Source: an uncultured Eubacteriales bacterium (lineage in GTDB: Bacteria > Bacillota > Clostridia > Lachnospirales > Lachnospiraceae). From it: a DNA stretch of 45,314 nucleotides. The translations under genes and the position numbers were made by a program. The notes beneath the pieces are model-generated. The model searched no databases. It saw nothing but the letters and a program-made list of their open reading frames with translations, and had not been told where the DNA came from. The stretch spans positions 1 to 45,314 of the forward strand of contig OMVU01000018.1 in the NCBI GenBank assembly GCA_900314565.1. The letters run 5' to 3'. Below are positions 2,790 to 19,283 of the stretch, piece after piece; positions within the stretch are counted from its first letter, which is position 1; every line of letters begins with the position of its first letter.

Positions 2790-2978
2790 CTGAAATCTGC
2801 TAGACAGAGCAAATAACTGAAATCTGCGGGACAGAACAAGCAAATGAAATCTGCAGGACAGAACAAGCAAATGAAATCTGCGGGACAGAGCAAGTAACTG
2901 AAATCTGCGGGACAGAGCAAGTAACTGAAATCTGCTAGACAGAGCAAATAACTGAAATCTGCAGGACAGAGCAGGTAA
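2790..2978. repeat. Tandem repeat, 27 bp unit, 7 copies
   Basis: Seven 27-bp units follow the stop codon of the OPT gene without a gap. Each has the form (C/A)TGAAATCTGC..GACAGA.CAA.TAA and would encode LKSARQSK-stop or close variants in the gene's own frame. The final codons of the OPT gene (2766-2789) match the second half of the unit, so the array appears to have grown from the end of the gene. Confidence 0.95.
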
Positions 2979-3047
2979 ATGAAGTGAGATTCAGTTTCAG
3001 TCTTCGGCTTGGTTAAGAACGCCGAGGCAATCCTGATAAAAGAAAAG

Positions 3048-3101
3048 AACTGCCGTATTTCATTCGGTTCAAAGACAGACCGAATAAAATACGGCAGTTT
3101 T
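3048..3101. terminator. Bidirectional intrinsic terminator
   Basis: AACTGCCGTATT at 3048 and AATACGGCAGTT near 3088 form the base of a long stem, extended by ATTCGGT/ACCGAAT around a short loop. It is followed by TTTTC on the plus strand and by GTTCTTTTCTTTT on the minus strand. It can end the OPT transcript and the convergent rpiB-phosphohexomutase transcript. Confidence 0.85.
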
Positions 3102-3142
3102 CATATTTTTATGCTGTCAGGCAGATGAATTGATTGTCAGCT

Positions 3143-3300
3143 GCCTTCTGAGGCATGTTGTGCAGGAAGCCTGTCGTGCCTTCTGAGGCATGTTGTGCAG
3201 GAAGCCTGTCGTGCCTTCTGAGGCATGTTGTGCAGGAAGCCTGTCGTGCCTTCTGAGGAATACCGTGCAGGAGGCCTGCCGTGCCGTCAGAGCTGTGCAG
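3143..3300. repeat. Tandem repeat, 35 bp unit, 4 copies plus a degenerate fifth
   Basis: GCCTTCTGAGGCATGTTGTG begins at 3143, 3178 and 3213; a diverged unit starts at 3248 and a degenerate one at 3283. The array ends a few bases short of the stop codon of the convergent phosphohexomutase gene. Confidence 0.92.
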
Positions 3301-3308
3301 GACAGGAG

Positions 3309-4814
3309 TTATCGGTAAAGACGGTCATGCTCCGCAAAGAAAGATTCCAACCGTCCCTCGATGATCTTTGTTCCGCCGGCAGCCTGCGCCTCCAGATTGA
3401 TCGGGATGACCGGATCATGCAGGGACATGCGGATCAGCATCCAGCCCTGAACTTCGTCATCGTCAAAGCTGATACGGACCCCCTCGTAGTTGGGAGAGAC
3501 AATGTGGAATCGCGGGTCCTTCTCTGCAAATGCCTCGAAGTCCGTAAGGACCTGCTTTCCATACTCTGCGAAATTATCGCCTTTTATGGTGTAACGGATC
3601 TCTGCGGATTCGGCAGGTGCGCCGAGCGTGCTGATGAGATCCTTGATACTGCGCCCTTCCGCACGGAGCCGGGCAGCCTTGCAGATGATTTTTACGCAGA
3701 GGTATGCGCCGTCGTCGGAGAAATAGTTCTCCTTCAGAGCGCCGTGCCCGCTTGTCTCGATCGCCAGCGGGCAGTTGATGCCGGCCGCGTTCAGCTCGAT
3801 CCCCTTATTGATCACATTCTTGTAGCCTCTCTTGAATCGGAGATGCTTCATCCCGAGATCCTTCTCGAGGAAGACGGCAAGCTCGTCGCTGGTGACAGAG
3901 TCGGTGACGATCGTTGCTCCGGGATTCTTCTCCTGTAAAATGGCAGCCATGAGGGCAATCAGCGTATTGCGGTTGACTTCGGATCCGTCGGAGAAAACCG
4001 CTGCGCCGCGGTCTCCGTCACAGTCGAAAATCACGCCGAGGTCAGCCCCGGAGGAGATGACTGCGCTCGATATAGCGGCCATGGCGACCGGATTTTCCGG
4101 GTTCGGAACATGGTTCGGGAAATTTCCGTCCGGATCCAGATAGACGCTCCCGCTGATATCAGCCCCCAGCGGTTCGAGTATGCGGGAGGCGAAGAAGCCG
4201 GACGCGCCGTTCCCTGCGTCGACGACGATATGCAGTCCCAGGAGAGGATGGTCGTAATCGTCCGCGTTGACCTCCTCTTTGATGATGTCCATCATGCGGC
4301 TGCTGTAAGCGGAGACCAGATCGAAGCTTTCAGCGGAAACTGACTCACTTACAGAGATATTTTTTTCGGATGCAGTCTTAAGGATCTCCGTGATATCCGC
4401 CTTCTCGAGACCACCGTCTTTCGTAAAGAATTTCAGTCCGTTGCGGTTAAAGGGAAGGTGGCTTGCCGTGATCATGACGGCCCCGTCGAACGCGCTCTCA
4501 GGAAGGATCGTCGAGATGAAGAGGGAAGGAGTGGACGCGAGTCCACAGTCGTATGCATGGGCTCCGGAAAGCCCGGACAGGACGCCGTTCTTCAGGATAT
4601 CCGCGGTGAGACGGCTGTCATGTCCCACACCGACCTTCAGCTCAGACGCGGGTTTTCCGGTCTTTTTTTCAAGCCATGCAAGAAATCCTGCCGCAATGTC
4701 CGCGGCGATTTCGGGCGTCAGGTTTTTGGGTTCCTTTTCGGTGGCGATAGCGCTTCCGCGTACATCGCTGCCGTTCTGGAGCGGTTTAAAGATCTTTTCG
4801 TAACGTTCGTTCAT
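3309..4814 (-). CDS. Phosphomannomutase/phosphoglucomutase (alpha-D-phosphohexomutase)
   Basis: The product is a cytoplasmic enzyme of 501 residues that interconverts hexose 6-phosphate and hexose 1-phosphate, feeding nucleotide-sugar synthesis. Domain 1 has VGHDSR (about residues 63-68) and the phospho-serine loop TASHLPFNRNG with Ser118. The metal loop DCDGDRG (Asp264, 266, 268) is intact, and a sugar-binding ETSGHGALKE motif is near 355-365. The phospho-serine loop reads SHLP rather than the commoner SHNP, as in a known subgroup of these enzymes. The start at 4814 has AGGGAGG just upstream. It lies 24 bases behind rpiB and is probably cotranscribed with it. Whether mannose or glucose phosphate is preferred cannot be told from sequence. 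Confidence 0.93.
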   Translation of the reverse strand: MNERYEKIFKPLQNGSDVRGSAIATEKEPKNLTPEIAADIAAGFLAWLEKKTGKPASELKVGVGHDSRLTADILKNGVLSGLSGAHAYDCGLASTPSLFISTILPESAFDGAVMITASHLPFNRNGLKFFTKDGGLEKADITEILKTASEKNISVSESVSAESFDLVSAYSSRMMDIIKEEVNADDYDHPLLGLHIVVDAGNGASGFFASRILEPLGADISGSVYLDPDGNFPNHVPNPENPVAMAAISSAVISSGADLGVIFDCDGDRGAAVFSDGSEVNRNTLIALMAAILQEKNPGATIVTDSVTSDELAVFLEKDLGMKHLRFKRGYKNVINKGIELNAAGINCPLAIETSGHGALKENYFSDDGAYLCVKIICKAARLRAEGRSIKDLISTLGAPAESAEIRYTIKGDNFAEYGKQVLTDFEAFAEKDPRFHIVSPNYEGVRISFDDDEVQGWMLIRMSLHDPVIPINLEAQAAGGTKIIEGRLESFFAEHDRLYR

Positions 4815-4838
4815 AACGACCTCCCTAAAAAGGTGGAA

Positions 4839-5267
4839 TCAGCCCTCAATCTTGTCGATTCTTCTCTGATGCTTCTCCATCTGGGAAAATTCAGTATTGA
4901 GCCAGGTATCTACGATATCCAGTGCAAGGAATTCTCCGGTGATGCCGGCGCCGAGCGCGAGGATATTGGAGTCATTGTGTTCCCTGGTAAGTCTCGCCAT
5001 TGTCACGCTTGTGCAGAGAGCGCAGCGTATTCCGGAGATTTTGTTGCAGACGATCGAAACGCCTATACCGGTCGTGCAGATGACGATGCCGCGCTCCGCC
5101 TCGCCGGAAGCGACTGCCTGCGCTGCGGGGCGGACCATGTCCGGATAATCGCAGGAATCTGTGCTGTAGCATCCGAAATCTTTGACTTCAAGTCCCTTTT
5201 CCGTAAGGTGCTCGATAATTTTTGTCTTCAGGTTGAATCCGCCATGATCAGAAGCAATTGCTATCAT
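4839..5267 (-). CDS. rpiB: Ribose 5-phosphate isomerase B (RpiB/LacAB family)
   Basis: The product (142 residues) should isomerise ribose 5-phosphate and ribulose 5-phosphate in the non-oxidative pentose phosphate pathway. The start ATG at 5267 is fixed by AAGGAGGTTTC just upstream; the longer frame to 5342 would run through the promoter. Visible motifs are ASDHGG (Asp7, His8), DFGCYSTDSCDYPD, the catalytic-cysteine loop VICTTGIGVSI with Cys64 (most relatives have GTGIG), and HNDSNILALG. Members of this family also act on galactose, allose or tetrulose phosphates, so another sugar phosphate is possible. It is the first gene of an operon with the phosphohexomutase. Confidence 0.92.
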   Translation of the reverse strand: MIAIASDHGGFNLKTKIIEHLTEKGLEVKDFGCYSTDSCDYPDMVRPAAQAVASGEAERGIVICTTGIGVSIVCNKISGIRCALCTSVTMARLTREHNDSNILALGAGITGEFLALDIVDTWLNTEFSQMEKHQRRIDKIEG

Positions 5268-5304
5268 AAGAAACCTCCTTGGTAAAGAGTGGTTATGTGA
5301 TTGA

Positions 5305-5319
5305 TTATGAAAATCATAA
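5305..5319. promoter_or_regulatory. Inverted repeat over the rpiB -10, possible operator
   Basis: TTATGA-AAA-TCATAA is a perfect inverted repeat that overlaps the -10 hexamer of the rpiB promoter, a position suited to repression. The binding protein is not known. The call is inference from symmetry and position. Confidence 0.45.
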
Positions 5320-5342
5320 CTGTTATCCGTTCGTCCTGTCAA
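5313..5342 (-). promoter_or_regulatory. Sigma-A promoter of the rpiB operon
   Basis: On the minus strand TTGACA (5342-5337) is followed after 18 bases by TATGAT (5318-5313), 46 bases ahead of the rpiB start codon. Confidence 0.75.
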
Positions 5343-5512
5343 TAAGTGCGGATGCGATGTGCTTCGATATTCTCTGAGCAGGAGCCCGACATACTGAGAA
5401 ATAATGCGGCCGCTTTGGAGTGTCTGACTTCATCGTTTGAAAAACAACCGGCGCATTCTCGTGTTTTCAAACATGAGCTTCACTGTGCGGCGGGCTGTAT
5501 TATTCAGACCGA

Positions 5513-5530
5513 TATGATATATTTATCATA
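5513..5530. promoter_or_regulatory. Inverted repeat ahead of the saccharopine-dehydrogenase-like gene
   Basis: TATGATATATTTATCATA is a perfect inverted repeat (TATGATA, 4-base centre, TATCATA) 71 bases ahead of the start at 5602. It shares the half-site letters TATGA/TCATA with the repeat in the divergent rpiB promoter, though the spacing differs. It is a possible operator. Apart from this, 5343-5601 holds no clear gene. Confidence 0.4.
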
Positions 5531-5601
5531 GCAGCTTGAACGTATGGATATTGTGTTCGCAACTGCCCGGTTGTGTTCATAAGGAAAGGAAGTGTACCCG
5601 G

Positions 5602-6780
5602 ATGAAAGCCGGGGTCATTGGATACGGTGTGCAGGGGAGTGCGGTGGTCTCTATCCTGGAAAAGACATCTGATATTACGGAAATCATTGTGATCGACAGC
5701 AGCAGTGACAAAATCAGACGTTGTGAGAAAGTCTCCGATCCGGGGAAAGTCAGAGCCTTTTGCGCTGACGTGGCAGATATTCTCAGAATGAATCATTATC
5801 TTGAGGGCTGCGGAGTAATTTTTGACATGCTCACGCCGGAGCTTTCGGAAAGTATATTGAAGATCGCCCTGCAGAATGATGCAAATTATATCAGCACAGC
5901 CTTCGATGAGCCCTTCTGGAGCGCAATCATTAATGGTCAGGAACTGCCTTATCAAAAAGAGTTTCAGGAAAAAGGCCTGGTCGCCCTGCTGGGATGCGGG
6001 GACAGTCCGGGGCTGGTCAATGTTTTTGTAAAAAAGTACTGTGACTGTTTTGACAAAGTGACTGATATAGAGATGTACGGGGCGTACAAAAAGGGCGCTT
6101 CGGGGCTCCTTCTGGGATGGGATCCGGGGTGGTCGCAAAAGCAGGCATATAAAGATTACATTTCAAACCCTGCAGTATTTCGTGACGGACAGTTTATGTT
6201 CCTTTCTCCCTTTGCGGAGATCGAGACGAAAGAAATCTATCAATACGGGCAGAGGACATTGGCCGCGCATTCCCATGAAGAGTGCTATTCGCTTCCGCTG
6301 AATATCAAAAAGGGTCTGAAGAACTGCATTTTTAAGTATGAGGTGGATCCTGCAGCTGCGCTTCTCTATTCTCTCGGATTCAGGCTTTCGAAAAAAGTGC
6401 AGGTCGGGGATACAGAGGTTTCTGTCGTCGAGTGCCTGAACAAACTGTTTGAAGAACAGGGAAGCGTCCCGGCATTGAGCGATGAAAATGAATACACTAC
6501 AACGATAAATATCCATGGAATTTCCGGAGGAAAAGAAGGCGATATTACTGTTGCCCTGCCTCCGATCTATGCAGACAAAAAGCGGACGGTGGAGCAATTC
6601 GGAGTTCTGCATGTCGAGGTCGCGCTGCCGGCGGTCCTTGGAATGAAGTGTATGAAGAGCCTTGATCCGGGGGTCCATTTTGCTGAGGAGCTCATTCCGG
6701 CGGAGTTTACGGACTGCCTCAATGAGCTGCTTCCGTATCAGGAGGTCGTGCTCAGAGATACGGCAGGGATTTTGTCCTGA
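5602..6780 (+). CDS. Saccharopine dehydrogenase family protein
   Basis: The product has 392 residues, the usual length for the family. The N-terminal Rossmann fold is clear: MKAGVIGYGVQGSAVVS (GxGxxG at residues 7-12), then VIDSSSDKI as the second strand that would contact the NAD(P) ribose. A loop GCGDSPGLVNVFVKKYCD in the middle is typical of saccharopine reductases and of carboxynorspermidine or homospermidine synthase relatives. Residues 1-22 of the longer frame back to 5536 are unlike the family; AAGGAAAGGAAG lies 9-20 bases before 5602. It is followed 103 bases later by pdxA in the same direction. The substrate is undetermined; a polyamine or opine-like conjugate is as likely as saccharopine. 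Confidence 0.8.
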   Translation: MKAGVIGYGVQGSAVVSILEKTSDITEIIVIDSSSDKIRRCEKVSDPGKVRAFCADVADILRMNHYLEGCGVIFDMLTPELSESILKIALQNDANYISTAFDEPFWSAIINGQELPYQKEFQEKGLVALLGCGDSPGLVNVFVKKYCDCFDKVTDIEMYGAYKKGASGLLLGWDPGWSQKQAYKDYISNPAVFRDGQFMFLSPFAEIETKEIYQYGQRTLAAHSHEECYSLPLNIKKGLKNCIFKYEVDPAAALLYSLGFRLSKKVQVGDTEVSVVECLNKLFEEQGSVPALSDENEYTTTINIHGISGGKEGDITVALPPIYADKKRTVEQFGVLHVEVALPAVLGMKCMKSLDPGVHFAEELIPAEFTDCLNELLPYQEVVLRDTAGILS

Positions 6781-6883
6781 GTGTCTTCCGGATGGAAGAC
6801 TGCGGAAATATTCTGCTTCGAATGATATTCATCTGACAGTTTCAGTCTGAAAGAAATACACGTATACAGAGGAGGGAAAATAC

Positions 6884-7912
6884 TTGAAAAAACCAATCAT
6901 TGCAGTACCGATCGGCGATCCGGCGGGTGTCGGCCCCGAGATCGTTTCAATGGCGCTGGCGGACGCCGGCACACAAAGTATTGCGGACTGTATCATTATC
7001 GGGGATAAGCAGGTCATGGAGAAGGCGATCGCCATCACAGGCGTATCGCTTCAGATCAATGTCGTGAAGGAACCCGAAGAGGGAGATTACAGGCCGGGCG
7101 TTATGAATCTGATCGATCTTTCCAATATTGATCAGTCAGTTTTTGAATACGGAAAAGTGCAGGCCATGTGCGGAAAAGCTGCATATGCCTATATTGCAAA
7201 AAGTATTGAGCTTACGATGAACGGAAAGGCGGCAGCAGTCGCGACGACGCCGATCAACAAAGAATCACTGCACGCAGCCGAAGTTCCTTTTATCGGGCAT
7301 ACCGAGATCTTCGGGGCTCTGACAGGTACCGAAGACCCTCTTACTATGTTCGAGACCAATGGCCTGCGCGTCTTTTTCCTGACCCGCCACCTGTCCCTGA
7401 GGGATATGCTTGATCAGATCACAAAGGAAAACATTATCGCCTGCGCAGTGCAGTGTATTGAAGCCCTGGAGCGCCTCGGCGTGAAGGACGGAACGATGGC
7501 GGTCGCCGGTCTGAATCCGCACTGCGGTGAGCATGGCCTGTTCGGCTGGGAGGAAGTCAACGAGATCACGCCTGCAGTGGAAGAACTGCAGAAAATGGGG
7601 TACAACGTGGCCGGCCCGATCGGCGCGGACTCGGTGTTCCATCAGGCGGCTCTCGGAAAATACACATGCGTCCTCTCGCTCTATCACGATCAGGGACACA
7701 TTGCAACGAAGACGCTGGACTTTGACAGGACGATTTCCATCACGAACGGGATGCCGATCCTTCGCACGAGCGTGGATCACGGCACGGCGTTTGATATTGC
7801 GGGGAAGGGAATCGTGAGCCCGGTCAGCATGATCGAAGCAATCAGGCTGGCGGCGAAATACGCACCGAATTTCAGAAGCAGAGAAAGAGGGGAAGACTAT
7901 GGCTATCAATGA
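6884..7912 (+). CDS. pdxA: 4-hydroxythreonine-4-phosphate dehydrogenase family (PdxA/PdxA2)
   Basis: The product (342 residues) is a metal-dependent NAD(P) dehydrogenase. PdxA proper acts in the DXP-dependent vitamin B6 pathway; the PdxA2 branch oxidises 4-phospho-D-threonate or -erythronate. The start is TTG at 6884, set by AGAGGAGGG at 6868-6876; no ATG fits. Family motifs are [15 protein letters not shown] at the N terminus, [22 protein letters not shown] and [10 protein letters not shown], which supply the metal-ligand histidines. No other B6 genes lie nearby, so the catabolic branch is a real alternative. The gene overlaps the start of the arsR gene by 14 bases, suggesting coupled translation. 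Confidence 0.88.
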
Positions 7913-8258
7913 TGTGGAACACTGCGAACATACTGAAATACACGCCGAACTGGTCGAGGCAGCCAGAGCGCACATGCCTGCGGAAGATGAGCTCTATGAT
8001 CTTGCGGAGCTCTTTAAGGTCTTCGGGGATTCGACGCGCATCCGTATCCTTTTTGCCCTCTTTGAAAATGAGATCTGCGTCTGCGACCTTGCGGAGCTTC
8101 TCAACATGACGCAGTCAGCGATCTCCCATCAGCTTCGAATCCTGAAGAATGCAAGACTCGTAAAGAGCCGGCGTGAGGGAAAGCAGGTCTTTTATTATCT
8201 GGCGGATGATCATGTTCGAACGATCATCAATCAGGGATTGGATCATATAGAGGAGTAA
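7899..8258 (+). CDS. ArsR/SmtB-family metal-responsive repressor
   Basis: The product (119 residues) is a winged-helix dimer that should release DNA when it binds metal. The recognition helix is [20 protein letters not shown] (about 70-89), followed by the wing [12 protein letters not shown]. Two metal sites can be read. The C-terminal helix has Asp103-x-His105-x10-His116-x2-Glu119, the Zn site of SmtB/CzrA. Near the third helix it has Cys60-Val-Cys62-Asp-Leu, like the thiol site of CadC/ArsR proteins, and the N terminus is rich in His and Cys. The neighbours are a metallochaperone and a P1B ATPase, and a 26-bp operator sits at their promoter, so it most likely controls Zn/Cd efflux. AGAGGGGAAG precedes the ATG. 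Confidence 0.92.
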
Positions 8259-8801: not shown

Positions 8802-9035
8802 ATGGATAAGGTCGCATACTTAAAGGCTGCCTGCAAAGCAAAAGGAAGCATGCTAAAGCGCTGCAAAGTAAAGAACTGCAAAGCAAAGAGCTGCAAAGTA
8901 AAGAACTGCAAAGTAAAGCGCTGCAACGTAAAGGGCTGCAAAGTAAAGCGCTGCAAAGTAAAGCGCTTCAAAATAAGGCACAGCAAAATAATAAAGTATA
9001 ATAAGGGTTTGCAAAATAAAGGAACAAAATCATGA
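8802..9035 (+). CDS. Possible Cys-Lys repeat peptide, 77 residues (doubtful)
   Basis: An open frame from ATG 8802 reads [20 protein letters not shown] and then a five-residue repeat of the form C-K-V-K-(N/R/G), giving eight cysteines mostly five residues apart. Its stop overlaps the ATG of the ATPase gene (ATGA at 9032-9035), a coupling arrangement. Against it: no good ribosome site at the right distance (GGAGGAGGG is about 19 bases from the ATG and lies in the terminator hairpin), a terminator just upstream, and many non-coding arrays nearby. If made, it would be a small basic thiol-rich metal-binding peptide. The same bases read on the minus strand as an LQRFT repeat, which I do not call. 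Confidence 0.3.
8861..8998. repeat. Tandem repeat, 15 bp unit, about 9 copies
   Basis: The unit is CTGCAAAGTAAAG(A/C)(A/G), beginning at 8861, 8876, 8891 and so on with a strict 15-bp period. Copies towards 8990 decay to TTCAAAATAAGGC. It lies between the HMA gene and the ATPase gene. Confidence 0.93.
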
Positions 9036-10928: not shown

Positions 10929-10962
10929 GGCCTCGGAGGGATTGTCCTTCCGGGGCTTTTTT
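10929..10962 (+). terminator. Intrinsic terminator behind the ATPase gene
   Basis: GGCCTCGGAGGGA and TCCTTCCGGGGC form the stem around TTG, followed by TTTTTT. Confidence 0.85.
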
Positions 10963-11057
10963 ATTCTTCATCGCGCAATACTCGTGATTTTAATCATGAG
11001 ATACGCGTGCAAAGTGAAACTCTCCTTCATCGTGAGTACAATCTTGCGATGAAGAAT
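10963..11057. repeat. Palindromic element of about 95 bp
   Basis: ATTCTTCATCGC at 10963 and its exact complement GCGATGAAGAAT at 11046 bound a stretch that contains a second hairpin (CTCGTGATT/AATCATGAG). No gene is visible inside. Function is unknown; it may be a dispersed palindromic repeat. Confidence 0.55.
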
Positions 11058-11132
11058 AAAAGCCTCAGCTACACAATGCCCACAGGAGCATTGTTACGCA
11101 TGCTTAGGCACGGCGGATCGCAGCCGCTCAAG

Positions 11133-11188
11133 GAGGAAGGTGCTTCGCACCCTGCGCGGCGCGGCAAGAACGCCGAGGCGTTCTTGAA
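11133..11188 (+). repeat. 56-bp double-hairpin element, left copy
   Basis: The element contains GGTGCTTCGCACC (stem of 5) and AAGAACGCCGAGGCGTTCTT (stem of 9), joined by a GCGCGGCGCGG-rich spacer. An inverted copy lies at 11978-12033 with 52 of 56 bases matching, and the start of the second hairpin, AAGAACGCCGAGGC, recurs at 3015-3028. The pair encloses hisB. It resembles bacterial REP/BIME-type repeats in layout. The rest of 11058-11351 shows nothing else. Confidence 0.85.
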
Positions 11189-11351
11189 GTGCAGGAAAGA
11201 AGCAGCGGCTCTCGCGTTGACGGAAAACAAGTTGTTGACAGGTCAGGGCATAAAAGGTACTCTGAGGGCACGAGCAGATTTCTGAAAGAAAAGTGTAAGA
11301 GCATAAATTTCAGAGATAAAAATGGTAATGACCATGTATGAGGAGGTTCCC

Positions 11352-11942: not shown

Positions 11943-11977
11943 TGAAGCTGGCCTTGCTGTGAGAGGTGAGCATTTTG

Positions 11978-12033
11978 TTCAGGAACGCCTCAGCGTTCTT
12001 GCCGCGCCGCGCATGGTGCGAAGTACCTTCCTC
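11978..12033 (-). repeat. 56-bp double-hairpin element, right copy
   Basis: This is the reverse complement of 11133-11188 with four mismatches, two of them inside the hairpin parts. See the left copy for structure. It starts 35 bases after the hisB stop codon. Confidence 0.85.
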
Positions 12034-12097
12034 TTTGCACGGCGGCATGGTTATTTAGAAAACCGGATAAACACAGAGAATAATATGGAAGATCAAT

Positions 12098-12213: not shown

Positions 12214-14295
12214 TTATTTTGAGCTTGATTTTGATTTCTGTTTCTTTTTACCGGTTTCCTGTTTTTTGGTATTCGGCTTCTTAGCATCCGGTTTCTGCCA
12301 GGTCGGCGGAGGCACCGGAATCGAGTCGAGATCGATCGCCTCAATCTCTGCCTCGAGCTGCCTGCGAACCCGTTCGCGTTTGCGCTTTGACTCCTCTGCC
12401 TTCTTTTTGCGCACCTGCTGTACATGTACGAACGAGATACCGAGCGCGATGAGGAGCACGCCAAGGATGGCAAGAAGGACCTTGATGAAGACGTTTCCGA
12501 CAGTTTTTCCGCTCTTTGTGGCCGGCTTCGAGAAGAATTTCGGAATTCCAGCGAAGAAGGATCCTATTACGCGGAGTCCTCTCACGATCAGGCTGCCGAT
12601 CCCCTTGAAAAAGCCGCCGACGGCCGAGAGCGCACCTTTGATCAGTCCTCCGATTGCGGAAAACATACTTCCCAGACCTGCGAGGAACCCGCCTGAAGAC
12701 GCACCGTCTGATTCTCCCTTTTTCGAATCCTTCCCGGAAGCATCTGCATTCTCACCGGACTTGCCATCAACGCTTTCGTCTGTCCCGATACTCTCAGCCT
12801 GGCTGGGTTTCGTGATTTCCTGCGGTTTCTCCGTGGGTGTCGGGATCGGTGTCGGTTTGACTGCGAACGTGACATCTACGGTGTGATTTTCCTGAATATT
12901 TTCGATTACATAGCGATCCGGATATTCTTCGAGGTCGATCTCCTCTCCGTCGACGAAGACAGAGGAGGTCTCGTATCCTTCCTTCGGAGTGTAGTTGACT
13001 GCGTAGCCGGTGCCGCGCAGGACTTGGGCGGAGCCTTCGGTGACGGAGCCGCCGGTGTCTTCCATGATGGCCGCGAGTGCACTGACATTGTATTTGTCAT
13101 CGGATGCGGTCAGACCGTTCCTGTTCAGGCGGTCGTTTCCGATGCTGCCTTTCGCTGCAGTGTTCCCGTTTGTCGAGGCACCTGCTGCGGCAGATTTTAC
13201 TTTTCCGTCAGCAGCTGCTGTGGCGGCAGTCTTTACATTTCCGCCGGATCTGACTGCACCGCTCAGTTCAGTCTTCATGGTGTCTGCATTGTAGGGGAGT
13301 TTTTCATTTCCCGAATCGGAGAGAGTGGCAGTATCGACCGTCTGCGACGTCACCTCGACGGTAAAATAGTAGGGCAGGACCGTCTGGTAGAAATACACGT
13401 ACATGCTTCCGTCGTAGCCTGTTGCGGTGACCGGCATGAGAAATACACCCGGTTCCGGCTCACAGATGCTCTCCGGCTCGTAGTGCTGCGCGCCCTGATC
13501 GCCCGGATTGAAATAAGCGCTCTGAATCATCCCGCGGCGGGAAATCGAGAAGATGTTGACGTATTCTCCGATCCCCATGCCGAAAGTCAGGGGTGAGATC
13601 AGCAGATAATCGCCGTCCACACAGAAATCCTGATAATTCACACCGGGTGAGGTGCTCGTCGGTCCGAAATCGTCGATGATCTGGAAATTCGCGTCGAGAC
13701 GCTTTATGCTGTAGCCTCCGGAATCGTTGGTGATGATCATGTACTCGTCAGAGTCTTCGAGATACTCGATGCCGAGAATATTATATCCGTCAGCTATCTT
13801 GATGGAGTTTTTAAAGGAAAGGGTATCGGGATCCATGACGAAAATGCAGCCGGCATTTTCGGGTCTCAGGGCTGTATAAAGCGCGACATAGATCTCATTG
13901 GTGCGGGGGTTATAGGTCATCCCGTTGCCGTGCTCCCAGTCGAAATCATTGACGCGTTTGGCGAGGGAGTACTGCTCGACGTCATTTCCATTCTCGTCGT
14001 AAGCCAGCTTGTAATAGGCGGAAACGGTGTCCGGCTGATTGGGATCCTCAGATGTGTTCTCAATAGTGATAATATAGTAGTCGGTACAGCAGATCGACTG
14101 GATCACGCCGTGGGCGGATTGGATATTGTCCTCGAAGACGATATCCCACTGCATGTTGTTGAAGGCGTCGTCTCCGGTGATCTCTGCGCTGACGTCTGCC
14201 GCGGAAATGCACACAAAAAGAACGACTGCCAAAAGTAAGGCAGTCGCGCGGTAAAATCCTTTTAAAAATGAAAGAAATCCGCCCCTCAAATTCAA
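12214..14295 (-). CDS. Secreted, membrane-anchored protein with a propeller-like N-terminal half
   Basis: The product has about 693 residues with TTG 14295 as start (GGGGAG lies 7 bases before). ATG 14328 and GTG 14517 are in frame but have no ribosome site. A signal peptide (KGFYRATALLLAVVLFVCIS) is followed by about 280 residues of short beta blades such as GNGMTYNPRTNEIYVAL and LLISPLTFGMGIGEYVNIFS, which I read as a propeller. Then come a Ser/Ala/Gly-rich linker, a small domain with GYAVNYTPKEGYETSSVFVDG, a Pro/Thr linker, a Gly-rich stretch (GGFLAGLGSMFSAIGGLIKG), one membrane segment (VFIKVLLAILGVLLIALGIS) and a basic, partly coiled C-terminal tail facing the cytoplasm. I do not recognise a named family. 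It could be a surface sensor or wall-binding protein. Confidence 0.75.
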   Translation of the reverse strand: MNLRGGFLSFLKGFYRATALLLAVVLFVCISAADVSAEITGDDAFNNMQWDIVFEDNIQSAHGVIQSICCTDYYIITIENTSEDPNQPDTVSAYYKLAYDENGNDVEQYSLAKRVNDFDWEHGNGMTYNPRTNEIYVALYTALRPENAGCIFVMDPDTLSFKNSIKIADGYNILGIEYLEDSDEYMIITNDSGGYSIKRLDANFQIIDDFGPTSTSPGVNYQDFCVDGDYLLISPLTFGMGIGEYVNIFSISRRGMIQSAYFNPGDQGAQHYEPESICEPEPGVFLMPVTATGYDGSMYVYFYQTVLPYYFTVEVTSQTVDTATLSDSGNEKLPYNADTMKTELSGAVRSGGNVKTAATAAADGKVKSAAAGASTNGNTAAKGSIGNDRLNRNGLTASDDKYNVSALAAIMEDTGGSVTEGSAQVLRGTGYAVNYTPKEGYETSSVFVDGEEIDLEEYPDRYVIENIQENHTVDVTFAVKPTPIPTPTEKPQEITKPSQAESIGTDESVDGKSGENADASGKDSKKGESDGASSGGFLAGLGSMFSAIGGLIKGALSAVGGFFKGIGSLIVRGLRVIGSFFAGIPKFFSKPATKSGKTVGNVFIKVLLAILGVLLIALGISFVHVQQVRKKKAEESKRKRERVRRQLEAEIEAIDLDSIPVPPPTWQKPDAKKPNTKKQETGKKKQKSKSSSK

Positions 14296-14304
14296 GGCCG
14301 TGCT

Positions 14305-14382
14305 CCCCTTATGTGCGAGCCTGCCCATTTGCCAGACAAGAAAGGCAAATAACAAGCATCCGGTTCCCCTTATATGCGGGCC
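14305..14382. repeat. Imperfect direct repeat, about 61 bp apart, at the start of the membrane-anchored gene
   Basis: CCCCTTATGTGCGAGCC at 14305 and CCCCTTATATGCGGGCC at 14366 are near copies. On the minus strand each offers AAGGGGA, and the downstream one acts as the ribosome site for the TTG start. A duplication may have created an alternative start region. Confidence 0.5.
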
Positions 14383-14552
14383 TCCCTGCAGGTCCGTTGA
14401 TCTGATTTCGCAGTGCTCAAAGCTCCCCAGCTCATGCAAAAATACCGGCAGAAGCCGGTTCCTGAAATATTGTACACTAAAGTGAGAAAAAATGCGACAG
14501 GATTTTATGGTAAACACGATATTTTAATCTCTGACGCAGCTTCCGATAAGAT

Positions 14553-14636
14553 ATATCTCAGTGTGAGATGCCCCCGCCTCTATAGGCGGCCAACAAATCA
14601 GTCTCAGTGGCGGGTGTCAATCCCCCACTGAGATAT
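14553..14636. other. 84-bp element with competing hairpins, unknown function
   Basis: The ends ATATCTCAGTG and CACTGAGATAT are perfect inverted repeats. Inside are ATCTCA-GTG-TGAGAT, CCGCC-TCTATA-GGCGG and a strong stem CTCAGTGGCGGG/CCCCCACTGAG with one bulge. The left end and the third stem compete for the same right-end bases, so two folds exclude one another. It lies 228 bases ahead of cbiD on one strand and 258 bases ahead of the minus-strand TTG start on the other. It could be an RNA switch or a miniature mobile element; no poly-U tract follows on either side. Confidence 0.5.
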
Positions 14637-14684
14637 ACGCTCCGTGTACACGATGATCATAATTCGTCCGGTAAATCGGAGCGG

Positions 14685-14713
14685 TTGTCAGAGTTCGGGA
14701 TTTTTGGTATTCT
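14685..14713 (+). promoter_or_regulatory. Probable promoter of the cbi genes
   Basis: TTGTCA (14685-14690) and TATTCT (14708-14713) are 17 bases apart, about 150 bases ahead of cbiD. I found no cobalamin riboswitch box in the leader. Confidence 0.5.
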
Positions 14714-14754
14714 GAATCGGGATATCTGACATGCGAATCCCGCACTTTCGTCTC

Positions 14755-14843
14755 GCGGCCGAGATTGGAAGAAGTCATCTCGTTCTTATTCCGGGCTTTG
14801 AGGAAGGCCTTTCATCCCGCGAGCGAAATTGGAAGAAGTCTGG
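14755..14843. repeat. Imperfect tandem duplication ahead of cbiD, 64 bp period
   Basis: ATTGGAAGAAGTC occurs at 14764 and 14828, each preceded by a similar CTTTCRTCYCGCG stretch. The second copy ends 21 bases before the cbiD start. Confidence 0.55.
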
Positions 14844-14864
14844 GAATACATCAGCAGGTGAAAA

Positions 14865-16385
14865 ATGGCTCTTGATTATTATATTCATTCCGGCGGAAAA
14901 CGTCTCCGCTGCGGGTTTACCACCGGTACCTGCGCCGCACTCGCCGCAGCCGGTGCAGTAGCGGGGCTCCTGACAGGAGAACTCCCGGATCATATGTCAC
15001 TCGTGACGCCTGCCGGGGTTTCCGTCGAAGTTCCTCTCGTCCGGGTGAAGAGCGGCGTCTCTTCCGTATGCGGCGTGCGCAAGGATGCGGGGGATGACCG
15101 TGATGCTACAGACGGGATCCTCATCGTTGCGGAAGCGTCCCGTGGGAAAGACGAAAGATCAGAAAATACAATAGCATCCTGTGGGAATGACGGCGGATCA
15201 GATGATGCAGAGGGATCATTCGGGAATGACGGCGGATCAGATGATGCAGAGGGATCATTCGGGAAAGACGGCGGATCAGATGATACAGAGGGATCCTGTG
15301 GGAAAGACGGCGGATCAGACGATACAGAGGGATTATTTGGGAAAGACGGCGAATCAGCCGATACAGAGGATTTCGGCGGGATCAGAGTTCAGATCGAAGG
15401 CGGTCCGGGTGTCGGACGCGTCACAAAGCCGGGTCTTGACCAGCCCGTCGGTGCTGCGGCAATCAACAGCACTCCCCGCAGAATGATCGAAGACGCAGTC
15501 CGAAAGGTCTGCGAATCGACAGGATATGAGGGGACGGTCTGTATCTGTATTTCCGTACCGGATGGGGAGAAGATCGCTGAAAAGACATTCAACGGACATC
15601 TCGGGATCGAGGGCGGAATTTCGATCCTCGGTACGTCCGGGATCGTGAAGCCGATGAGCATGCAGGCGTATATCGACGCGGTCAATATTGAGATCCGCCA
15701 GCATGCGGCGATGGGAAAGAGAAGGCTGATCCTCGTACCCGGCAATTACGGGAAGAATTTTCTGCATGAGTTGCGAGAAGGATCATTCCCTGTACCGGGC
15801 ATGCAGGATGCGGGGGTGCAGGGCGGGGAGGAGAATTTATTCGGACCGGTCTCTTACGCCTCCCGTGCTGCGGATTCCGAGAGCATTGGTGAGATTCTTC
15901 AGGACAGGTCTGTTCCCGTGGTCATGTGCTCCAATTTTATCGGCGATGCGCTGGACTCCGCGGGGATGTATGGCTTCGATGAGGTGCTCCTTGTGGGCCA
16001 TATAGGCAAAATGGTAAAGCTGGCCGGCGGGATCATGAACACACACAGCATGTATGCGGACTGCCGGACAGAACTTTTCTGTGCCCATGCCGCGGTCTGC
16101 GGGGCCCGGACGGAAGTCTGCAGGGAAATCATGTCCGCCGCAACGACGGATGCCTGCCTCGGGATCCTTGAGAGGGAAGGAATCAGGGAAACGGTCATGG
16201 ACTCTCTTATGACGGCAGTCTGCGGTCATATTTCCCGGCGTGTCTGTGGTTCCGGTTCCCGGAAAGTCTCCCGGAAATGCCGGATCCATGTGCTCGTGTT
16301 TTCCAATATTTACGGAATCCTTGGGATACGAACGGTTTTTCCGGACACGCTTGACACGGAAAAATCCTGCGATACAATGAATTGA
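14865..16385 (+). CDS. cbiD: Cobalt-precorrin-5B (C1)-methyltransferase with an in-frame repeat insert
   Basis: CbiD adds the C1 methyl group to cobalt-precorrin-5B in the anaerobic (early cobalt insertion) route to cobalamin. The N terminus LRCGFTTGTCAALAAAGAVAG is the family signature, and GRVTKPGLDQPVGAAAINSTPR and GTSGIVKPMS also match. At 506 residues it is well above the usual 360-380. The excess includes a repeat insert at residues about 107-171 made of five 13-residue units (GNDGGSDDAEGSF and variants), from a 39-bp tandem array. The insert is acidic and Gly-rich, so probably a disordered loop. It lies between the substrate-domain strands SVEVPLVRVKSG and GIRVQIEGG, where relatives have a short loop. 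AGGTGAAAA precedes the ATG. First gene of cbiD-F-G-H. Confidence 0.93.
   Translation: MALDYYIHSGGKRLRCGFTTGTCAALAAAGAVAGLLTGELPDHMSLVTPAGVSVEVPLVRVKSGVSSVCGVRKDAGDDRDATDGILIVAEASRGKDERSENTIASCGNDGGSDDAEGSFGNDGGSDDAEGSFGKDGGSDDTEGSCGKDGGSDDTEGLFGKDGESADTEDFGGIRVQIEGGPGVGRVTKPGLDQPVGAAAINSTPRRMIEDAVRKVCESTGYEGTVCICISVPDGEKIAEKTFNGHLGIEGGISILGTSGIVKPMSMQAYIDAVNIEIRQHAAMGKRRLILVPGNYGKNFLHELREGSFPVPGMQDAGVQGGEENLFGPVSYASRAADSESIGEILQDRSVPVVMCSNFIGDALDSAGMYGFDEVLLVGHIGKMVKLAGGIMNTHSMYADCRTELFCAHAAVCGARTEVCREIMSAATTDACLGILEREGIRETVMDSLMTAVCGHISRRVCGSGSRKVSRKCRIHVLVFSNIYGILGIRTVFPDTLDTEKSCDTMN
15183..15377 (+). repeat. In-frame tandem repeat inside cbiD, 39 bp unit, 5 copies
   Basis: Units begin at 15183, 15222, 15261, 15300 and 15339 with GGGAA(T/A)GACGGCGGATCAGA. 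Each encodes 13 residues, so gain or loss of a unit keeps the frame. Confidence 0.95.
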
Positions 16386-16415
16386 GCATGAAGAAGAATA
16401 ACCACGGAGGCATCT

Positions 16416-17192
16416 ATGATCTCAATCGTCGGAGCAGGTCCCGGAGCACCTGACCTCATCACAGTCCGCGGTGCCGGGCGGCTTCGAACCGCCGACACGG
16501 TCATTTACGCAGGAAGCCTCGTAAATCCTGCGATTCTCGGCCTCTGCGGAGATAATTCTTCTATATATAATAGCGCGGAGCTGACGCTCGAGGAGGTCAT
16601 GGAAATCATGCGGCGCGATCACGGAGCCGGCCGGGAGATTGTCCGGCTGCATACCGGAGATCCGAGCATTTTCGGGGCGATCCGTGAGCAGATCGATATT
16701 CTGAAAAAGGAGAACATCCCGTTTGAGATCATTCCCGGGGTCTCCAGCTTCTGCGGGGCAGCGGCCTCGCTGGAGGCGGAGTACACGCTCCCCGGCGTGA
16801 GTCAGACCGTAATTATCACGCGGATGGCCGGACACACACCGGTGCCGGAAAGGGAGAATCTTGCATCGCTGGCGGCGCATGGCGCGACGATGGCCATTTT
16901 TCTGTCGGCGGGCATGCTTTCTGAAGTCTCCGCGGCACTTCTTGCCGGCGCGTACACGGAGGAGACTCCGGCGGCAATTGTGTACAAAGCGACGTGGCCG
17001 GAAGAAAAGATCGTTCACTGCACCGTGGGAACGCTTTCTCTTGCAGGAAAGGCCGGAGGGATTTCAAGAACAGCGCTGATCCTCGTCGGGGATTTTCTGG
17101 GAGGTTCCTATGAGAGGAGCCGTCTGTATGATCCGGGATTTGAAACGGGCTACAGGAAGGCTTTGATCTGCCGGAGAAGAGAATCTGAATAA
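16416..17192 (+). CDS. cbiF: Cobalt-precorrin-4 (C11)-methyltransferase
   Basis: CbiF uses S-adenosylmethionine to methylate C11 of cobalt-precorrin-4. The 258-residue length and motifs fit: the N-terminal VGAGPGAPDLITVRG, then VIYAGSLVNPAIL, LHTGDPSIFGAIREQ and IIPGVSSFCGAAASLEAEYTLPG of the tetrapyrrole methyltransferase fold, with the SAM pocket at the TRMAGHTPVPERENL stretch. A CACGGAGG ribosome site precedes the ATG. It lies 30 bases behind cbiD and 58 ahead of cbiG. Confidence 0.95.
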   Translation: MISIVGAGPGAPDLITVRGAGRLRTADTVIYAGSLVNPAILGLCGDNSSIYNSAELTLEEVMEIMRRDHGAGREIVRLHTGDPSIFGAIREQIDILKKENIPFEIIPGVSSFCGAAASLEAEYTLPGVSQTVIITRMAGHTPVPERENLASLAAHGATMAIFLSAGMLSEVSAALLAGAYTEETPAAIVYKATWPEEKIVHCTVGTLSLAGKAGGISRTALILVGDFLGGSYERSRLYDPGFETGYRKALICRRRESE

Positions 17193-17250
17193 CGCTGGTT
17201 TCCCGACGGAAAACCAGGAGCTATATGTCAGGAGACAGACCTTAAAAGAT

Positions 17251-18474
17251 ATGATCCATATCATTTCATTTACTGATAAAGGACAGCGCCTTGCGGAGAA
17301 AATCGCAGACATTCTGGAAGGGCAGGCCGTTCGATGCGGCGCGGAGCATCCGCTCTCGGAGTGGACCCGGAATTCATTTTCAAAGGGAAATGCCCTCATC
17401 TATGTCGGCGCCGCCGGCATCGCCGTGCGGGCCATCGCGCCTTTTGTGCGGGATAAGGCCGTGGATCCGGCAGTCATCGTGGTCGACGAGACCGGAAAAT
17501 TTGTCATCCCGATCCTGAGCGGTCATCTCGGAGGGGCGAATGTGCTTGCATCGCGGATCGCTGACGAGATCGGTGCGGAGGCCGTGATCACCACAGCGAC
17601 CGACCGGAACAATGTGTTTTCTGTGGATGACTGGGCGAGAGCGCAGCGCATGCGTGTGGAAAACGTTCCCCTGATCAAGAAGATCTCTGCATGCATTCTG
17701 TCCGGCGGGACGATTCGGGTGGAGAGTAAATTTTCAATCGCCGGGGATGTGCCGGAGCATGTCAGCTATGTGAAGCTGCCGAGGACCGGAAGGACTACAG
17801 GACAGCCTGCGGAAAAAATCTCCGCAGATCATGAAAAAATTTCTCCGGATCGTGAAGAAATTTCCACGGATCGTAAATGTATCTCTCCGGATCGTGAAGA
17901 AATCTCCACAGATCGTAAATGTATCTCTCCGGATCGTGAAGATATTTCTCCGGATCGTAAATTAATTTCCCGGGATTGTGAAGAGATCAATCCGGGAGGA
18001 GAAAATGCGCTTCCCAATGTTTTCATCAGTGTCCGCACAGATATCTGCAGTCCGGCCCGCACGCTGCATCTGATTCCCCGCGTTGTCTATGCGGGGATCG
18101 GCTGCCGCCGCGGGACGACATCGGATCAGATTGCCAATGCGGTATACGCAGCCCTTGGCAGGCTGGACATTCACCCGTCTGCACTCGCCGGTGTTTCGAC
18201 GATCGACCTTAAGAAGGATGAGAAGGGGCTCCTTGAATTCTGCAGAGAACAGGAGATTCCCCTGATGACTTTCCCGGCGGAGGAGCTCGCTGCGGTACAG
18301 GGGGATTTTTCCTCGTCGGAATTCGTGTCGGAAGTCACAGGCGTTGGCTGCGTCTGCGAGCGAAGCGCGGTCCTTGCGAGCGGAGGGGTCCTCATTTTGC
18401 GGAAAATGGTGCGGGACGGTGTGACCTGCGCGCTTGCGTTCCGGGAGCCGGAGCTCAGCTGGAGCCGAGGATGA
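17251..18474 (+). CDS. cbiG: Cobalt-precorrin-5A hydrolase with an in-frame heptad repeat
   Basis: CbiG opens the delta-lactone of cobalt-precorrin-5A and releases the two-carbon fragment as acetaldehyde. The N-terminal part has LIYVGAAGIAVRAIAPFVRDKAVDP and VIPILSGHLGGANVLASRIA, typical of CbiG; the C-terminal part has YAGIGCRRGTTSDQI and GVSTIDLKKDEKGLLEF. Between them, residues 189-251 are nine seven-residue units of the form (E/K/C)ISPDRE or EISTDRK, from a 21-bp tandem array. The repeat sits in the linker between domains, where extra length should be tolerated. The ribosome site is weak (GGAGACAG about 13 bases away), so the start at 17251 rests on homology of MIHIISFTDKGQRLA. Confidence 0.92.
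   Translation: MIHIISFTDKGQRLAEKIADILEGQAVRCGAEHPLSEWTRNSFSKGNALIYVGAAGIAVRAIAPFVRDKAVDPAVIVVDETGKFVIPILSGHLGGANVLASRIADEIGAEAVITTATDRNNVFSVDDWARAQRMRVENVPLIKKISACILSGGTIRVESKFSIAGDVPEHVSYVKLPRTGRTTGQPAEKISADHEKISPDREEISTDRKCISPDREEISTDRKCISPDREDISPDRKLISRDCEEINPGGENALPNVFISVRTDICSPARTLHLIPRVVYAGIGCRRGTTSDQIANAVYAALGRLDIHPSALAGVSTIDLKKDEKGLLEFCREQEIPLMTFPAEELAAVQGDFSSSEFVSEVTGVGCVCERSAVLASGGVLILRKMVRDGVTCALAFREPELSWSRG
17815..18003 (+). repeat. In-frame tandem repeat inside cbiG, 21 bp unit, 9 copies
   Basis: Units such as TGTATCTCTCCGGATCGTGAA repeat every 21 bases, some in alternating pairs (ISPDRE then ISTDRK). The ends are diverged and the middle nearly exact, as expected of an active array. 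Confidence 0.95.
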
Positions 18475-18514
18475 GGCAGGACCCTTTCGGACAGTATCTC
18501 AGAGAGGAAGTACT

Positions 18515-19249
18515 ATGAGCACACTTTATGTTACAGGCATCGGACCGGGTTCCGATGCCTTTCTTACAAATGAAGCCCGGACAGTTATCGAGCAGGCGGA
18601 CGTCATCTGCGGCTACACGCTGTACGTTGATCTGCTTCGGAGCCGGTATCCCGATAAGGAGTTCATCACGACTCCGATGCGGCAGGAAATCGAGCGCTGC
18701 CGTATGGCGATGGAAGCCGCTTCGTCCGGCAGGACTGTCGCCATGGTCTGCAGCGGGGATGCGGGGATCTACGGGATGGCCGGTCCCCTCCTTGAAATGA
18801 ACGGCCGTTACCCGGACGTCGATATTCAGATCGTTCCGGGAATTACGGCAGCCGTTTCCGGCGCAGCAGTCCTCGGAGCTCCGCTCATGAATGATTTCTG
18901 TGTGATCTCGCTCTCTGACCTGCTCACACCGTGGCCGGTCATTGAGAAGAGACTCAGGGCAGCGGCGGCGGGGGACTTCTGTGTCTGCATTTACAATCCG
19001 ATGTCGAAAAAACGGCCGAACCATCTGGCAAAAGCCTGTGCGATCCTCATGGAGACGAAGCCCGCCGACACTGTCTGCGGATGGGTCCGCAATATCGGCA
19101 GGGAAGGGCAGGAATCTGAGATCCTGACGCTCGGCGAGCTCGCCGATGCGCAGCTTGATATGTTCACTACAGTGTTTGTCGGCTGCAGTGAGACACGTGT
19201 CCTGAACGGAAGGATGGTGACGGAGAGAGGCTATGAAGTCCGGAAGTAA
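18515..19249 (+). CDS. cbiH: Precorrin-3B/cobalt-precorrin-3 (C17)-methyltransferase
   Basis: CbiH methylates C17 and drives ring contraction in cobalamin synthesis. The start at 18515 follows GAGAGGAAG; the upstream frame to 18434 overlaps cbiG and has no family sequence. The 244 residues show LYVTGIGPGSDAFLTNEAR, VICGYTLYVDLL, AMVCSGDAGIYGMAG, QIVPGITAAVSGAAVLGAPL and FCVCIYNPMSKKRPNHL, all diagnostic. It is the last of the four cbi genes here. Other enzymes of the pathway (CbiC, CbiE/T, CbiJ, CbiK/X, CbiL) are not in this window. Its last codons are duplicated after the stop. Confidence 0.95.
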   Translation: MSTLYVTGIGPGSDAFLTNEARTVIEQADVICGYTLYVDLLRSRYPDKEFITTPMRQEIERCRMAMEAASSGRTVAMVCSGDAGIYGMAGPLLEMNGRYPDVDIQIVPGITAAVSGAAVLGAPLMNDFCVISLSDLLTPWPVIEKRLRAAAAGDFCVCIYNPMSKKRPNHLAKACAILMETKPADTVCGWVRNIGREGQESEILTLGELADAQLDMFTTVFVGCSETRVLNGRMVTERGYEVRK

Positions 19250-19283
19250 GGTGACGGAAAGAGGATATGGAGTTCGGAAGTAA
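19216..19283 (+). repeat. Tandem duplication of the cbiH 3' end, 34 bp unit, 2 copies
   Basis: GGTGACGGAGAGAGG...CGGAAGTAA (19216-19249) ends with the cbiH stop codon and is followed directly by a copy (19250-19283) with four changes. It is the same arrangement as the 27-bp array at the end of the OPT gene. Confidence 0.9.

What the first reader, a model, noticed from the sequence alone, without database searches (positions are those of the whole stretch)
2790..19283. A backbone full of tandem arrays that grow from gene ends and inside genes
Nine arrays or duplications lie in the first 20 kb: 62 bp (twice), 27, 35, 15, 39, 21, 34 and about 64 bp. Two begin exactly with the last codons of a gene (OPT, cbiH), and the two inside genes have periods divisible by three. 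I see none after 20 kb, where the accessory region begins. Units differ completely in sequence, so this is not one repeat family but a repeated process. Slippage-prone replication, loss of mismatch repair or an unknown duplication mechanism are possible.
Basis: partly seen in the sequence, partly recalled or inferred. Interest (0 to 1): 0.7.

Follow-up and report, generated by a model that had tools for sequence, protein, structure and literature searches.

The report
Repeat-prone genome with mirrored 62-bp arrays
The repeated DNA stretches are real and reflect a repeat-rich genome rather than one odd spot, and two of them turn out to be a single copy of a mirror-image repeat element that is scattered through this genome.

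Summary
The nine arrays or duplications are real; arrays of this strength are absent from 20 shuffles. They are two different things. (1) A genome-wide minisatellite load (units mostly 15-100 bp): 8.9 arrays per 100 kb here, 9.0 and 9.4 in congeners G005 and G001, 1.0-3.8 in five other congeners sampled. Most units are unrelated; inside genes 42 of 46 periods are divisible by three; three arrays are at most one copy in sister species G047. MutS and MutL are present; homopolymers are only mildly raised, dinucleotide runs not. Gene ends are not significantly favoured (11 stops, 7 starts). (2) The two 62-bp arrays are one dispersed element: 16 two-armed copies here, 8 in G047, seen in 2 of 42 genomes of the genus. 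Arms of 62-63-bp units face a 91-92-bp centre in 24 of 24. Closest published kind: constant-length, variable-sequence tandem repeats of Bacillus (52 or 20-21 nt). I found no description of the mirrored plan. Function is inferred only.

The parts
100..423 (+). X arm of the mirrored element: 62-63-bp units, five box1 (TTAGGYACAG) starts at 136, 198, 260, 323, 386
386..477 (.). Centre of the mirrored element: innermost box1 of each arm, 91 bp apart; 91-92 bp in 24 of 24 two-armed copies
452..601 (-). Y arm of the mirrored element: three units in the opposite orientation, box1 starts at 477, 539, 601
1..99 (.). 99-mer identical to the end of contig C118, where it also adjoins an X arm: end of a repeat shared by two places (probably an insertion element, inferred) at which the assembly breaks
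2769..2983 (+). 27-bp array, 8 copies, starting inside the last codons of the OPT transporter gene; no room for it in G005
3142..3307 (.). 35-bp array, 4.3 copies, abutting the 3' end of the phosphoglucomutase-type gene on the minus strand; no room for it in G005
8854..8991 (+). 15-bp array in the stretch before a P-type ATPase gene; not seen in L003
15138..15369 (+). 39-bp in-frame array inside cbiD; insert of similar place in L003 and L004, absent from the seven most distant CbiD proteins aligned
17812..17988 (+). 21-bp in-frame array inside cbiG; low-complexity insert at the same place in L003 and L004
19207..19291 (+). 34-bp array, 2.5 copies, starting inside the last codons of cbiH; L003 and L004 show about one partial copy

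Best explanation
Two things are laid over each other. First, this lineage forms and keeps minisatellites at a raised rate in its genome: stretches of about 15-100 bp of local sequence are tandemly duplicated, then grow, shrink and are homogenised by slippage or unequal recombination; purifying selection leaves them between genes, across gene ends and, when in frame, in variable loops of enzymes. Shown: density, mostly unrelated units, frame filter, one-copy states in the sister species for three arrays, presence of MutS and MutL. Inferred: the cause of the raised rate, and slippage against recombination. Second, the two 62-bp arrays are one copy of a dispersed, apparently non-coding, directional satellite element: an X arm and a Y arm of 62-63-bp units (about six helical turns), each unit with two inverted boxes, facing a conserved centre. 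Shown: the anatomy, the fixed geometry, shared sites with G047 at six loci, changing unit number. Inferred: that the boxes are sites for a double-stranded-DNA-binding protein that works on a regular lattice, and that the element spread by an old mobilisation that I could not identify.
For: Density: 55 arrays in 619 kb of the own genome outside the window (3 of them the 62-bp element), 20 in 223 kb of G005, 4 in 43 kb of G001, against 8 in 400 kb of five other congeners; rate ratio 4.5, p=2e-6. In-gene periods divisible by three 42 of 46. L216:10487, L225:6150 and L147:963 have about four copies here and one copy or a remnant in G047. MutS and MutL present. Element: one profile finds + units then - units at 16 loci here and 8 in G047, centre 91-92 bp in 24 of 24; unit spacing in G000 62 (49), 63 (25), 61 (2), 124 (2), and one of 1848 that holds an IS110-type transposase gene. 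Six G000 loci have the same neighbours in G047. Own left and right halves of the centre pair no better than swapped halves (16 loci, p=0.83), which favours recognition of the boxes as sequence over a maintained folded strand.
Against: The sample is uneven: 40-kb samples gave 2 arrays in G047, 1 in G044, 1 in G031, and order-level genomes range from 0 to 7.5 per 100 kb. Of 13 non-element arrays with flanks anchored in G047, five are unchanged, three are clear expansions and five unresolved. Homopolymers of 7 or more are at 1.18 times composition expectation here, 0.94 in G005, 0.72 in G001 and 0.23-0.79 in five low-density congeners, so a general slippage component is not excluded. L224 carries one arm only, inside a contig, without centre. 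Slower change of boxes than spacers between species is only suggestive (14 of 240 against 32 of 315, p=0.087). The centre does fold more stably than mononucleotide shuffles in 16 of 16 (z -1.8 to -6.7), and 3 of 17 predicted pairs have sequences with both sides changed (5, 1 and 1 sequences). No binding protein was identified. The genomes that carry the arrays are drafts, so copy numbers are uncertain.
Confidence: 0.7

Rival explanations
1. The arrays come from loss of mismatch repair or a generally slippage-prone replication.
For: Arrays are many and some change copy number between sister species. Homopolymers of 7 or more are mildly over-represented here against five low-density congeners (1.18 against 0.23-0.79 of expectation). 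I raised this rival from 0.10 to 0.15 because of that.
Against: A MutS-type protein (897-codon open frame) and MutL (719-codon open frame) are present. Dinucleotide runs are not raised (83 against 99 expected), nor tri- and tetranucleotide runs, while minisatellites are 4.5-fold up. Mismatch repair is not expected to correct loops of 15-60 nt (general knowledge). Polymerases and nucleases such as SbcCD were not searched.
Confidence: 0.15
2. The 62-bp element is an RNA gene or a mobile hairpin: the mirrored arms fold back in single-stranded RNA or DNA, as proposed for BOX or REP elements.
For: The 92-nt centre folds more stably than shuffles in 16 of 16 copies; the boxes of the two arms are complementary and 3 of 17 predicted pairs show changes on both sides in 5, 1 and 1 sequences.
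Against: Own halves do not pair better than swapped halves (mean -31.4 against -32.3 kcal/mol, p=0.83); covariation term only -0.71. In the six sources scanned no Rfam family matched the arms or centre, except a group II intron match that overlaps the outer end of one Y arm (L147:530-707).
Confidence: 0.25
3. The arrays are assembly artefacts.
For: Draft genomes; several 62-bp copies lie near contig ends and the window starts with a 99-mer shared with the end of contig C118.
Against: A separate assembly, G047, has the element at six shared sites with diverged units; units within arrays differ from one another; in-gene arrays keep the frame in 42 of 46 cases.
Confidence: 0.03
4. The mirrored element has no function now and is a relic of a miniature transposon whose arms were duplicated by the same process that makes the other minisatellites.
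For: Dispersed, between unrelated genes; used as insertion site by other elements; boxes not significantly more conserved than spacers between the two species; a one-armed copy exists (L224).
Against: A centre of 91-92 bp in 24 of 24 and units of 62-63 bp, although copies at different loci are only 67-75% identical for most matches, is hard to keep without selection or continuing mobilisation.
Confidence: 0.3

Closest known systems
Constant-length, variable-sequence tandem repeats of Bacillus and other Firmicutes (Subirana and Messeguer 2021, PMC8161180; parts 1-4 of 5 read)
   Same: Repeat size constant and not divisible by three, sequence differs between loci while short motifs, often with their reverse, are kept, species-specific, mostly short arrays, lengths differ between strains, function unknown; the authors suggest a polymerising DNA-binding protein or small RNA.
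   Different: Their sizes are 52 or 20-21 nt, here 62-63. The parts read describe no mirrored arms around a fixed centre.
Satellites of prokaryotes (PMC6749651; part 1 of 5 and passages read)
   Same: Dispersed non-coding satellite families with long repeats, reported there only for Leptospira interrogans and Methanocella conradii; in-gene satellites with periods of three. Arrays of at least four copies: 27 in 664 kb here, 41 per Mb by TRF, window included.
   Different: Group medians there are 0-3 per Mb and the densest bacterial replicon in their Table 1 has 23 per Mb; finder and thresholds differ, so the figures are not strictly comparable.
BOX elements of Streptococcus pneumoniae (PMC3049150; passages read)
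   Same: Modular intergenic repeat with variable number of tandem units, mostly confined to one species and close kin.
   Different: BOX has boxA and boxC ends around boxB units; here the repeated units are the two arms and the single part is the centre. No target-site duplication could be shown here.
REP-type palindromic repeats and insertion sequences that target them (PMC1525189 and PMC3733652; search listings only)
   Same: Intergenic inverted motifs into which IS110-type elements insert.
   Different: Units are 62-63 bp with two inverted boxes in mirrored arms; of nine Y1-transposase matches in the genome only one lies on a contig with a copy of the element, more than 30 kb away.

Membership tests
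Constant-length variable-sequence tandem repeats (Subirana and Messeguer) | Constant repeat length that is not a multiple of three | tested here: met
   62-bp spacing dominates: 62 (49), 63 (25), 61 (2), 124 (2), 1848 (1) of 79; 63 is itself divisible by three
Constant-length variable-sequence tandem repeats (Subirana and Messeguer) | Repeat length 52 or 20-21 nt | tested here: not met
   62-63 bp
Constant-length variable-sequence tandem repeats (Subirana and Messeguer) | Short motifs kept while the rest varies; species-restricted | tested here: met
   boxes kept; 2 of 42 genomes of the genus, only G000 in a 392-genome sample of the order
CRISPR array | Near-identical repeats with unique spacers | tested here: not met
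   whole units alike within an arm, 67-75% identity for most matches between loci, orientation flips at the centre; cas genes not searched
BOX element | boxA and boxC ends around tandem boxB | tested here: not met
   repeated arms around a single centre
BOX element / MITE | Terminal inverted repeats with target-site duplication | tested here: inconclusive
   sites without the element were too diverged or different in content
REP/RAYT system | RAYT-type Y1 transposase linked to the repeats | tested here: inconclusive
   nine Y1_Tnp matches on C150, C107, C172, C2, C176, C100 and C189; of these only C100 holds a copy (108.7-109.1 kb against 142.4 kb); RAYT subtype not tested
Mismatch-repair-deficient mutator | mutS or mutL missing | tested here: not met
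Mismatch-repair-deficient mutator | Raised short simple repeats | tested here: inconclusive
   homopolymers mildly raised against five congeners, dinucleotide runs not
Coding minisatellite (in-frame VNTR) | Period divisible by three, protein stays open | tested here: met
   42 of 46 in-gene arrays; CbiD and CbiG open and otherwise conserved

The most novel reading that the evidence does not exclude
The mirrored 62-bp arrays are an undescribed class of chromosomal DNA element: two directional arms of regularly spaced binding sites converging on a fixed centre, at about 18 places, read by an unknown lattice-forming protein that organises the chromosome or local expression; the Bacillus 52-nt arrays may share this plan.
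Probability: 0.22. Interest if true: 0.75.

Novelty: new variant of a known kind. Interest (0 to 1): 0.5.

Why it matters
The constant-size tandem repeats of Firmicutes have no accepted explanation (PMC8161180). A relative of that kind with a strict mirror plan, two distinguishable arms and shared copies in a sister species gives a concrete hypothesis (a regular double-stranded binding lattice) and a clear bait for finding the protein. The genome-wide minisatellite load, with mismatch-repair genes present, makes the control of medium-length repeats in bacteria a testable comparison between close congeners.

Tried and rejected
Mismatch-repair loss: genes present; a mild homopolymer excess stays unexplained. 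Preference for gene ends as a mechanism: 11 arrays touch a stop codon and 7 a start codon in the clade sample, p=0.48; start codons were called as the longest frame, so this is rough. Contrast between backbone and accessory region: not significant. Folded RNA or DNA under compensatory selection: not supported by the swap test. Common neighbour genes: 28 flanking proteins scanned, mixed functions, several without a Pfam match. Phage or plasmid origin: no match of window 90-610 in the phage or plasmid records. Four viral contigs matched the centre pattern, but they carry the same 92-nt stretch and no 62-bp unit at E up to 1, so chance. A clean site without the element: G005 has another sequence upstream of OPT; in G018 the neighbours of L219 stand close together without it but are too diverged. 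Mirrored arrays of other sequence: a scan of the fetched loci listed 15 rows, ten of them known copies; of the other five I inspected L103 (G021) and L158 (G005), which do not show the plan, and left L087, L220:3193 and L216:12280 uninspected. (OPT protein in viral contigs) confirmed no relative. The first paper search gave nothing useful.

Mistakes: the pattern had too long a gap (75-80 instead of about 72), so its zero result says nothing; the corrected pattern was run on viral contigs and on the window, where the window copy misses it because its innermost X box1 reads TTAGGTACGT. Two of the copy-number differences printed (L140:10954 and L140:13897) were alignment artefacts and proved unchanged on inspection; two of the eight element rows (L214, L219) were anchored on copies that are not orthologous. 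The array densities for G000 and G047 include stretches fetched because they hold the element and are not used as rates. My notebook entry speaks of a 31-bp lattice; the boxes in fact alternate at about 27 and 35 bp.
Full report
What was checked. The window is a whole contig (C89, 45,314 bp) of a 4.2-Mb draft genome in 191 contigs. Eight arrays reach score 80 in the first 19.3 kb, none in the rest, none in 20 shuffles.

Is it more than the genome's own background? In 619 kb of the same genome outside the window there are 55 such arrays, 8.9 per 100 kb, three of them the 62-bp element; G005 has 20 in 223 kb, G001 4 in 43 kb; G011, G013, G015, G016 and G018 together 8 in 400 kb. The rate ratio between the first three and the last five is 4.5, p=2e-6; stretches are clustered on few contigs, so p is optimistic. 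Later 40-kb samples gave 2 in G047, 1 in G044 and 1 in G031. Six genomes of the same order gave 0 to 7.5 per 100 kb in samples of 20-100 kb. Eight in 20 kb has P=5e-4 under the genome's rate, without correction for the choice of window, and another stretch, L140, also holds eight. The window is thus at the rich end of a rich genome. The empty second half is not significant (P=0.11).

What the ordinary arrays are. Among 87 unit consensus sequences from G000, G005, G001 and the window, 13 pairs share an 11-mer; three pairs are of the 62-bp kind, including the two with most shared 11-mers. Inside open frames of at least 150 codons 32 of 36 arrays in G000 (window included), 8 of 8 in G005 and 2 of 2 in G001 have a period divisible by three. 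Arrays touch stop codons 11 times and start codons 7 times, so 'growing from gene ends' is no shown rule; a duplication across a stop codon simply leaves the protein unchanged (inference). Between OPT and the PGM-type gene there are 519 bp here, but only about 120 bp between the aligned ends in G005, too little for either array. The 15-bp array is not seen in L003, and L003 and L004 show about one partial copy of the 34-bp unit at the cbiH end. In CbiD the array fills a site that is closed in the seven most distant of the eleven CbiD proteins aligned and falls between the two stretches aligned to the solved CbiD 1sr8; L003 and L004 keep an insert there with a faint 13-residue rhythm (my reading), so this array may predate these species and be refreshed in one and decayed in others. 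CbiG looks alike, although L051 and L009 also carry inserts there.

Is the process live? G047, a sister species with 81-98% DNA identity over shared stretches, allows comparison. Of 21 G000 arrays whose flanks could be anchored in its fetched contigs, 8 belong to the 62-bp element and 13 do not. Of the 13, five are unchanged, three show about four copies here against one copy or a remnant there (L216:10487, L147:963, L225:6150), and five are tangled with other changes. A MutS-type protein is present with an 897-codon frame and MutL with a 719-codon frame; 13 of 13 genomes tested have MutL. Homopolymers of 7 or more stand at 1.18 times the composition expectation in G000, 0.94 in G005, 0.72 in G001 and 0.23-0.79 in the five low-density congeners; dinucleotide runs are below expectation in all eight. 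So a mild general slippage effect is possible, but the strong effect is on medium-length units. Replication slippage and unequal recombination could not be separated.

The 62-bp element. A DNA search with the first array returned 17 matches in the own genome, three of them above E 0.3; the second array gave 29 matches in the own genome and only weak ones (E 0.038 or worse) in 10 of 20 relatives. An iterated profile finds both arrays with one model, first on the + and then on the - strand. With the final profile at a lax threshold there are 16 two-armed copies here and 8 in G047; L224 has one arm only inside a contig, and L227 and L268 are cut near contig ends; three weak single hits (E above 0.001) were dropped. 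Arms of two-armed copies hold 1 to 7 units. Spacing is 62 or 63 bp in 74 of 79 neighbours. The distance between innermost boxes is 91 or 92 bp in 24 of 24. Each unit carries box1 TTAGGYACAG and, about 27 bp on, box2 TTTGTTCYCC or TTTGTACTCC, an inverted relative of box1; the next box1 follows about 35 bp later (read by eye). The two arms differ: one has the X form (TTAGGTACAGCGGTGG), the other the Y form (TTAGGCACAGGAAGCAG), so copies have a direction; a consensus typed from the oriented alignment scores one orientation higher in 24 of 24, with L226 close (32 against 28), a test that is partly circular.

Distribution. A covariance model of the centre (16 copies) matched 2 of 42 genomes of the genus, G000 and G047, and in a 392-genome sample of the order only G000 (stricter filters, nine candidates scored per genome, so weak relatives could be missed). 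Six G000 copies have counterparts in G047 with matching flanks (L140/L260, window/L261, L147/L262, L225/L263, L215/L264, L216/L265). By the lax profile, unit counts differ in at least one arm in five of the six; the firm cases are L216 (flank distance differs by 187 bp, 3.0 units) and the window (five against six units over the shared span). No frame of 200 codons overlaps any of 18 copies, although frames of 97-188 codons overlap 11 of 18. The 28 neighbouring proteins scanned are of mixed kinds.

What it may do. The two halves of a centre do not pair better with each other than with halves from other loci (mean -31.4 against -32.3 kcal/mol, p=0.83), against a maintained folded strand, although the centre folds better than shuffles and 3 of 17 predicted pairs show changes on both sides. 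Between the two species boxes changed at 14 of 240 positions and spacers at 32 of 315 (p=0.087). Units of about six helical turns, inverted boxes and a fixed centre suggest double-stranded DNA recognised by a protein; this is inference and no protein is known.

Other elements land in it. In L148 an IS110-type transposase gene splits an X arm inside box1; what looks like the same element end stands at the same box1 position at another copy in G047 (L268; read by eye). The first 99 bases of the window are identical to the end of contig C118, where they also adjoin an X arm. REP sequences as targets of insertion sequences are a published parallel (PMC1525189, search listing only).

Comparison with what is known. 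Subirana and Messeguer (PMC8161180; parts 1-4 of 5 read) describe tandem repeats of constant size, 52 or 20-21 nt, with variable sequence, conserved short motifs often with their reverse, and strain-variable length, without known function. The 62-bp element agrees in kind but not in size, and the parts read describe no mirrored arms. The same authors (PMC6749651; part 1 and passages) found dispersed non-coding long-repeat families only in Leptospira interrogans and Methanocella conradii. My searches found no description of this element in the open library; their 2020 bacterial survey was not held.

Verdict. Observation confirmed; interpretation partly supported. The minisatellite load is an unusual but known kind of genome property. 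The mirrored 62-bp element is the more novel part, a new variant of a known but unexplained kind.

Noticed in passing
window 10956-11199: Another dispersed short repeat, 44 blastn pieces in the fetched own-genome stretches, the listed ones 80-97% identical, with inverted ends of the form TATTCTTCATCGC...GCGATGAAGAATA; looks like a MITE or structured intergenic repeat. No Rfam match in the window.
   Followed up: partly
window 11968-12047 and 14544-14644: Two further short dispersed repeats (21 and 5 blastn pieces); some hits of the first lie beside hits of the 10956-11199 repeat.
   Followed up: no
L148 4440-6230: IS110-type transposase element inserted inside box1 of a 62-bp array; what looks like the same element end sits at box1 of another array in G047 (L268 end). 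The array may be its programmed target.
   Followed up: partly
window 1-99 and L220 9894-9992: Identical 99-mer at two contig ends, each next to an X arm: end of a shared repeat at which the assembler stopped.
   Followed up: partly
L147 530-707: Rfam group-II-D1D4-3 match overlapping the outer end of a Y arm.
   Followed up: no
L274 18125-18256 (G044): A 62-bp duplication that starts with the last codons of a reading frame that looks like RNase H, unlike the element in sequence: a gene-end array in another congener.
   Followed up: no
window 22462-38597: Accessory region with LPXTG-anchored and pilin-like proteins and a type I restriction R subunit; no arrays of score 80 there.
   Followed up: no
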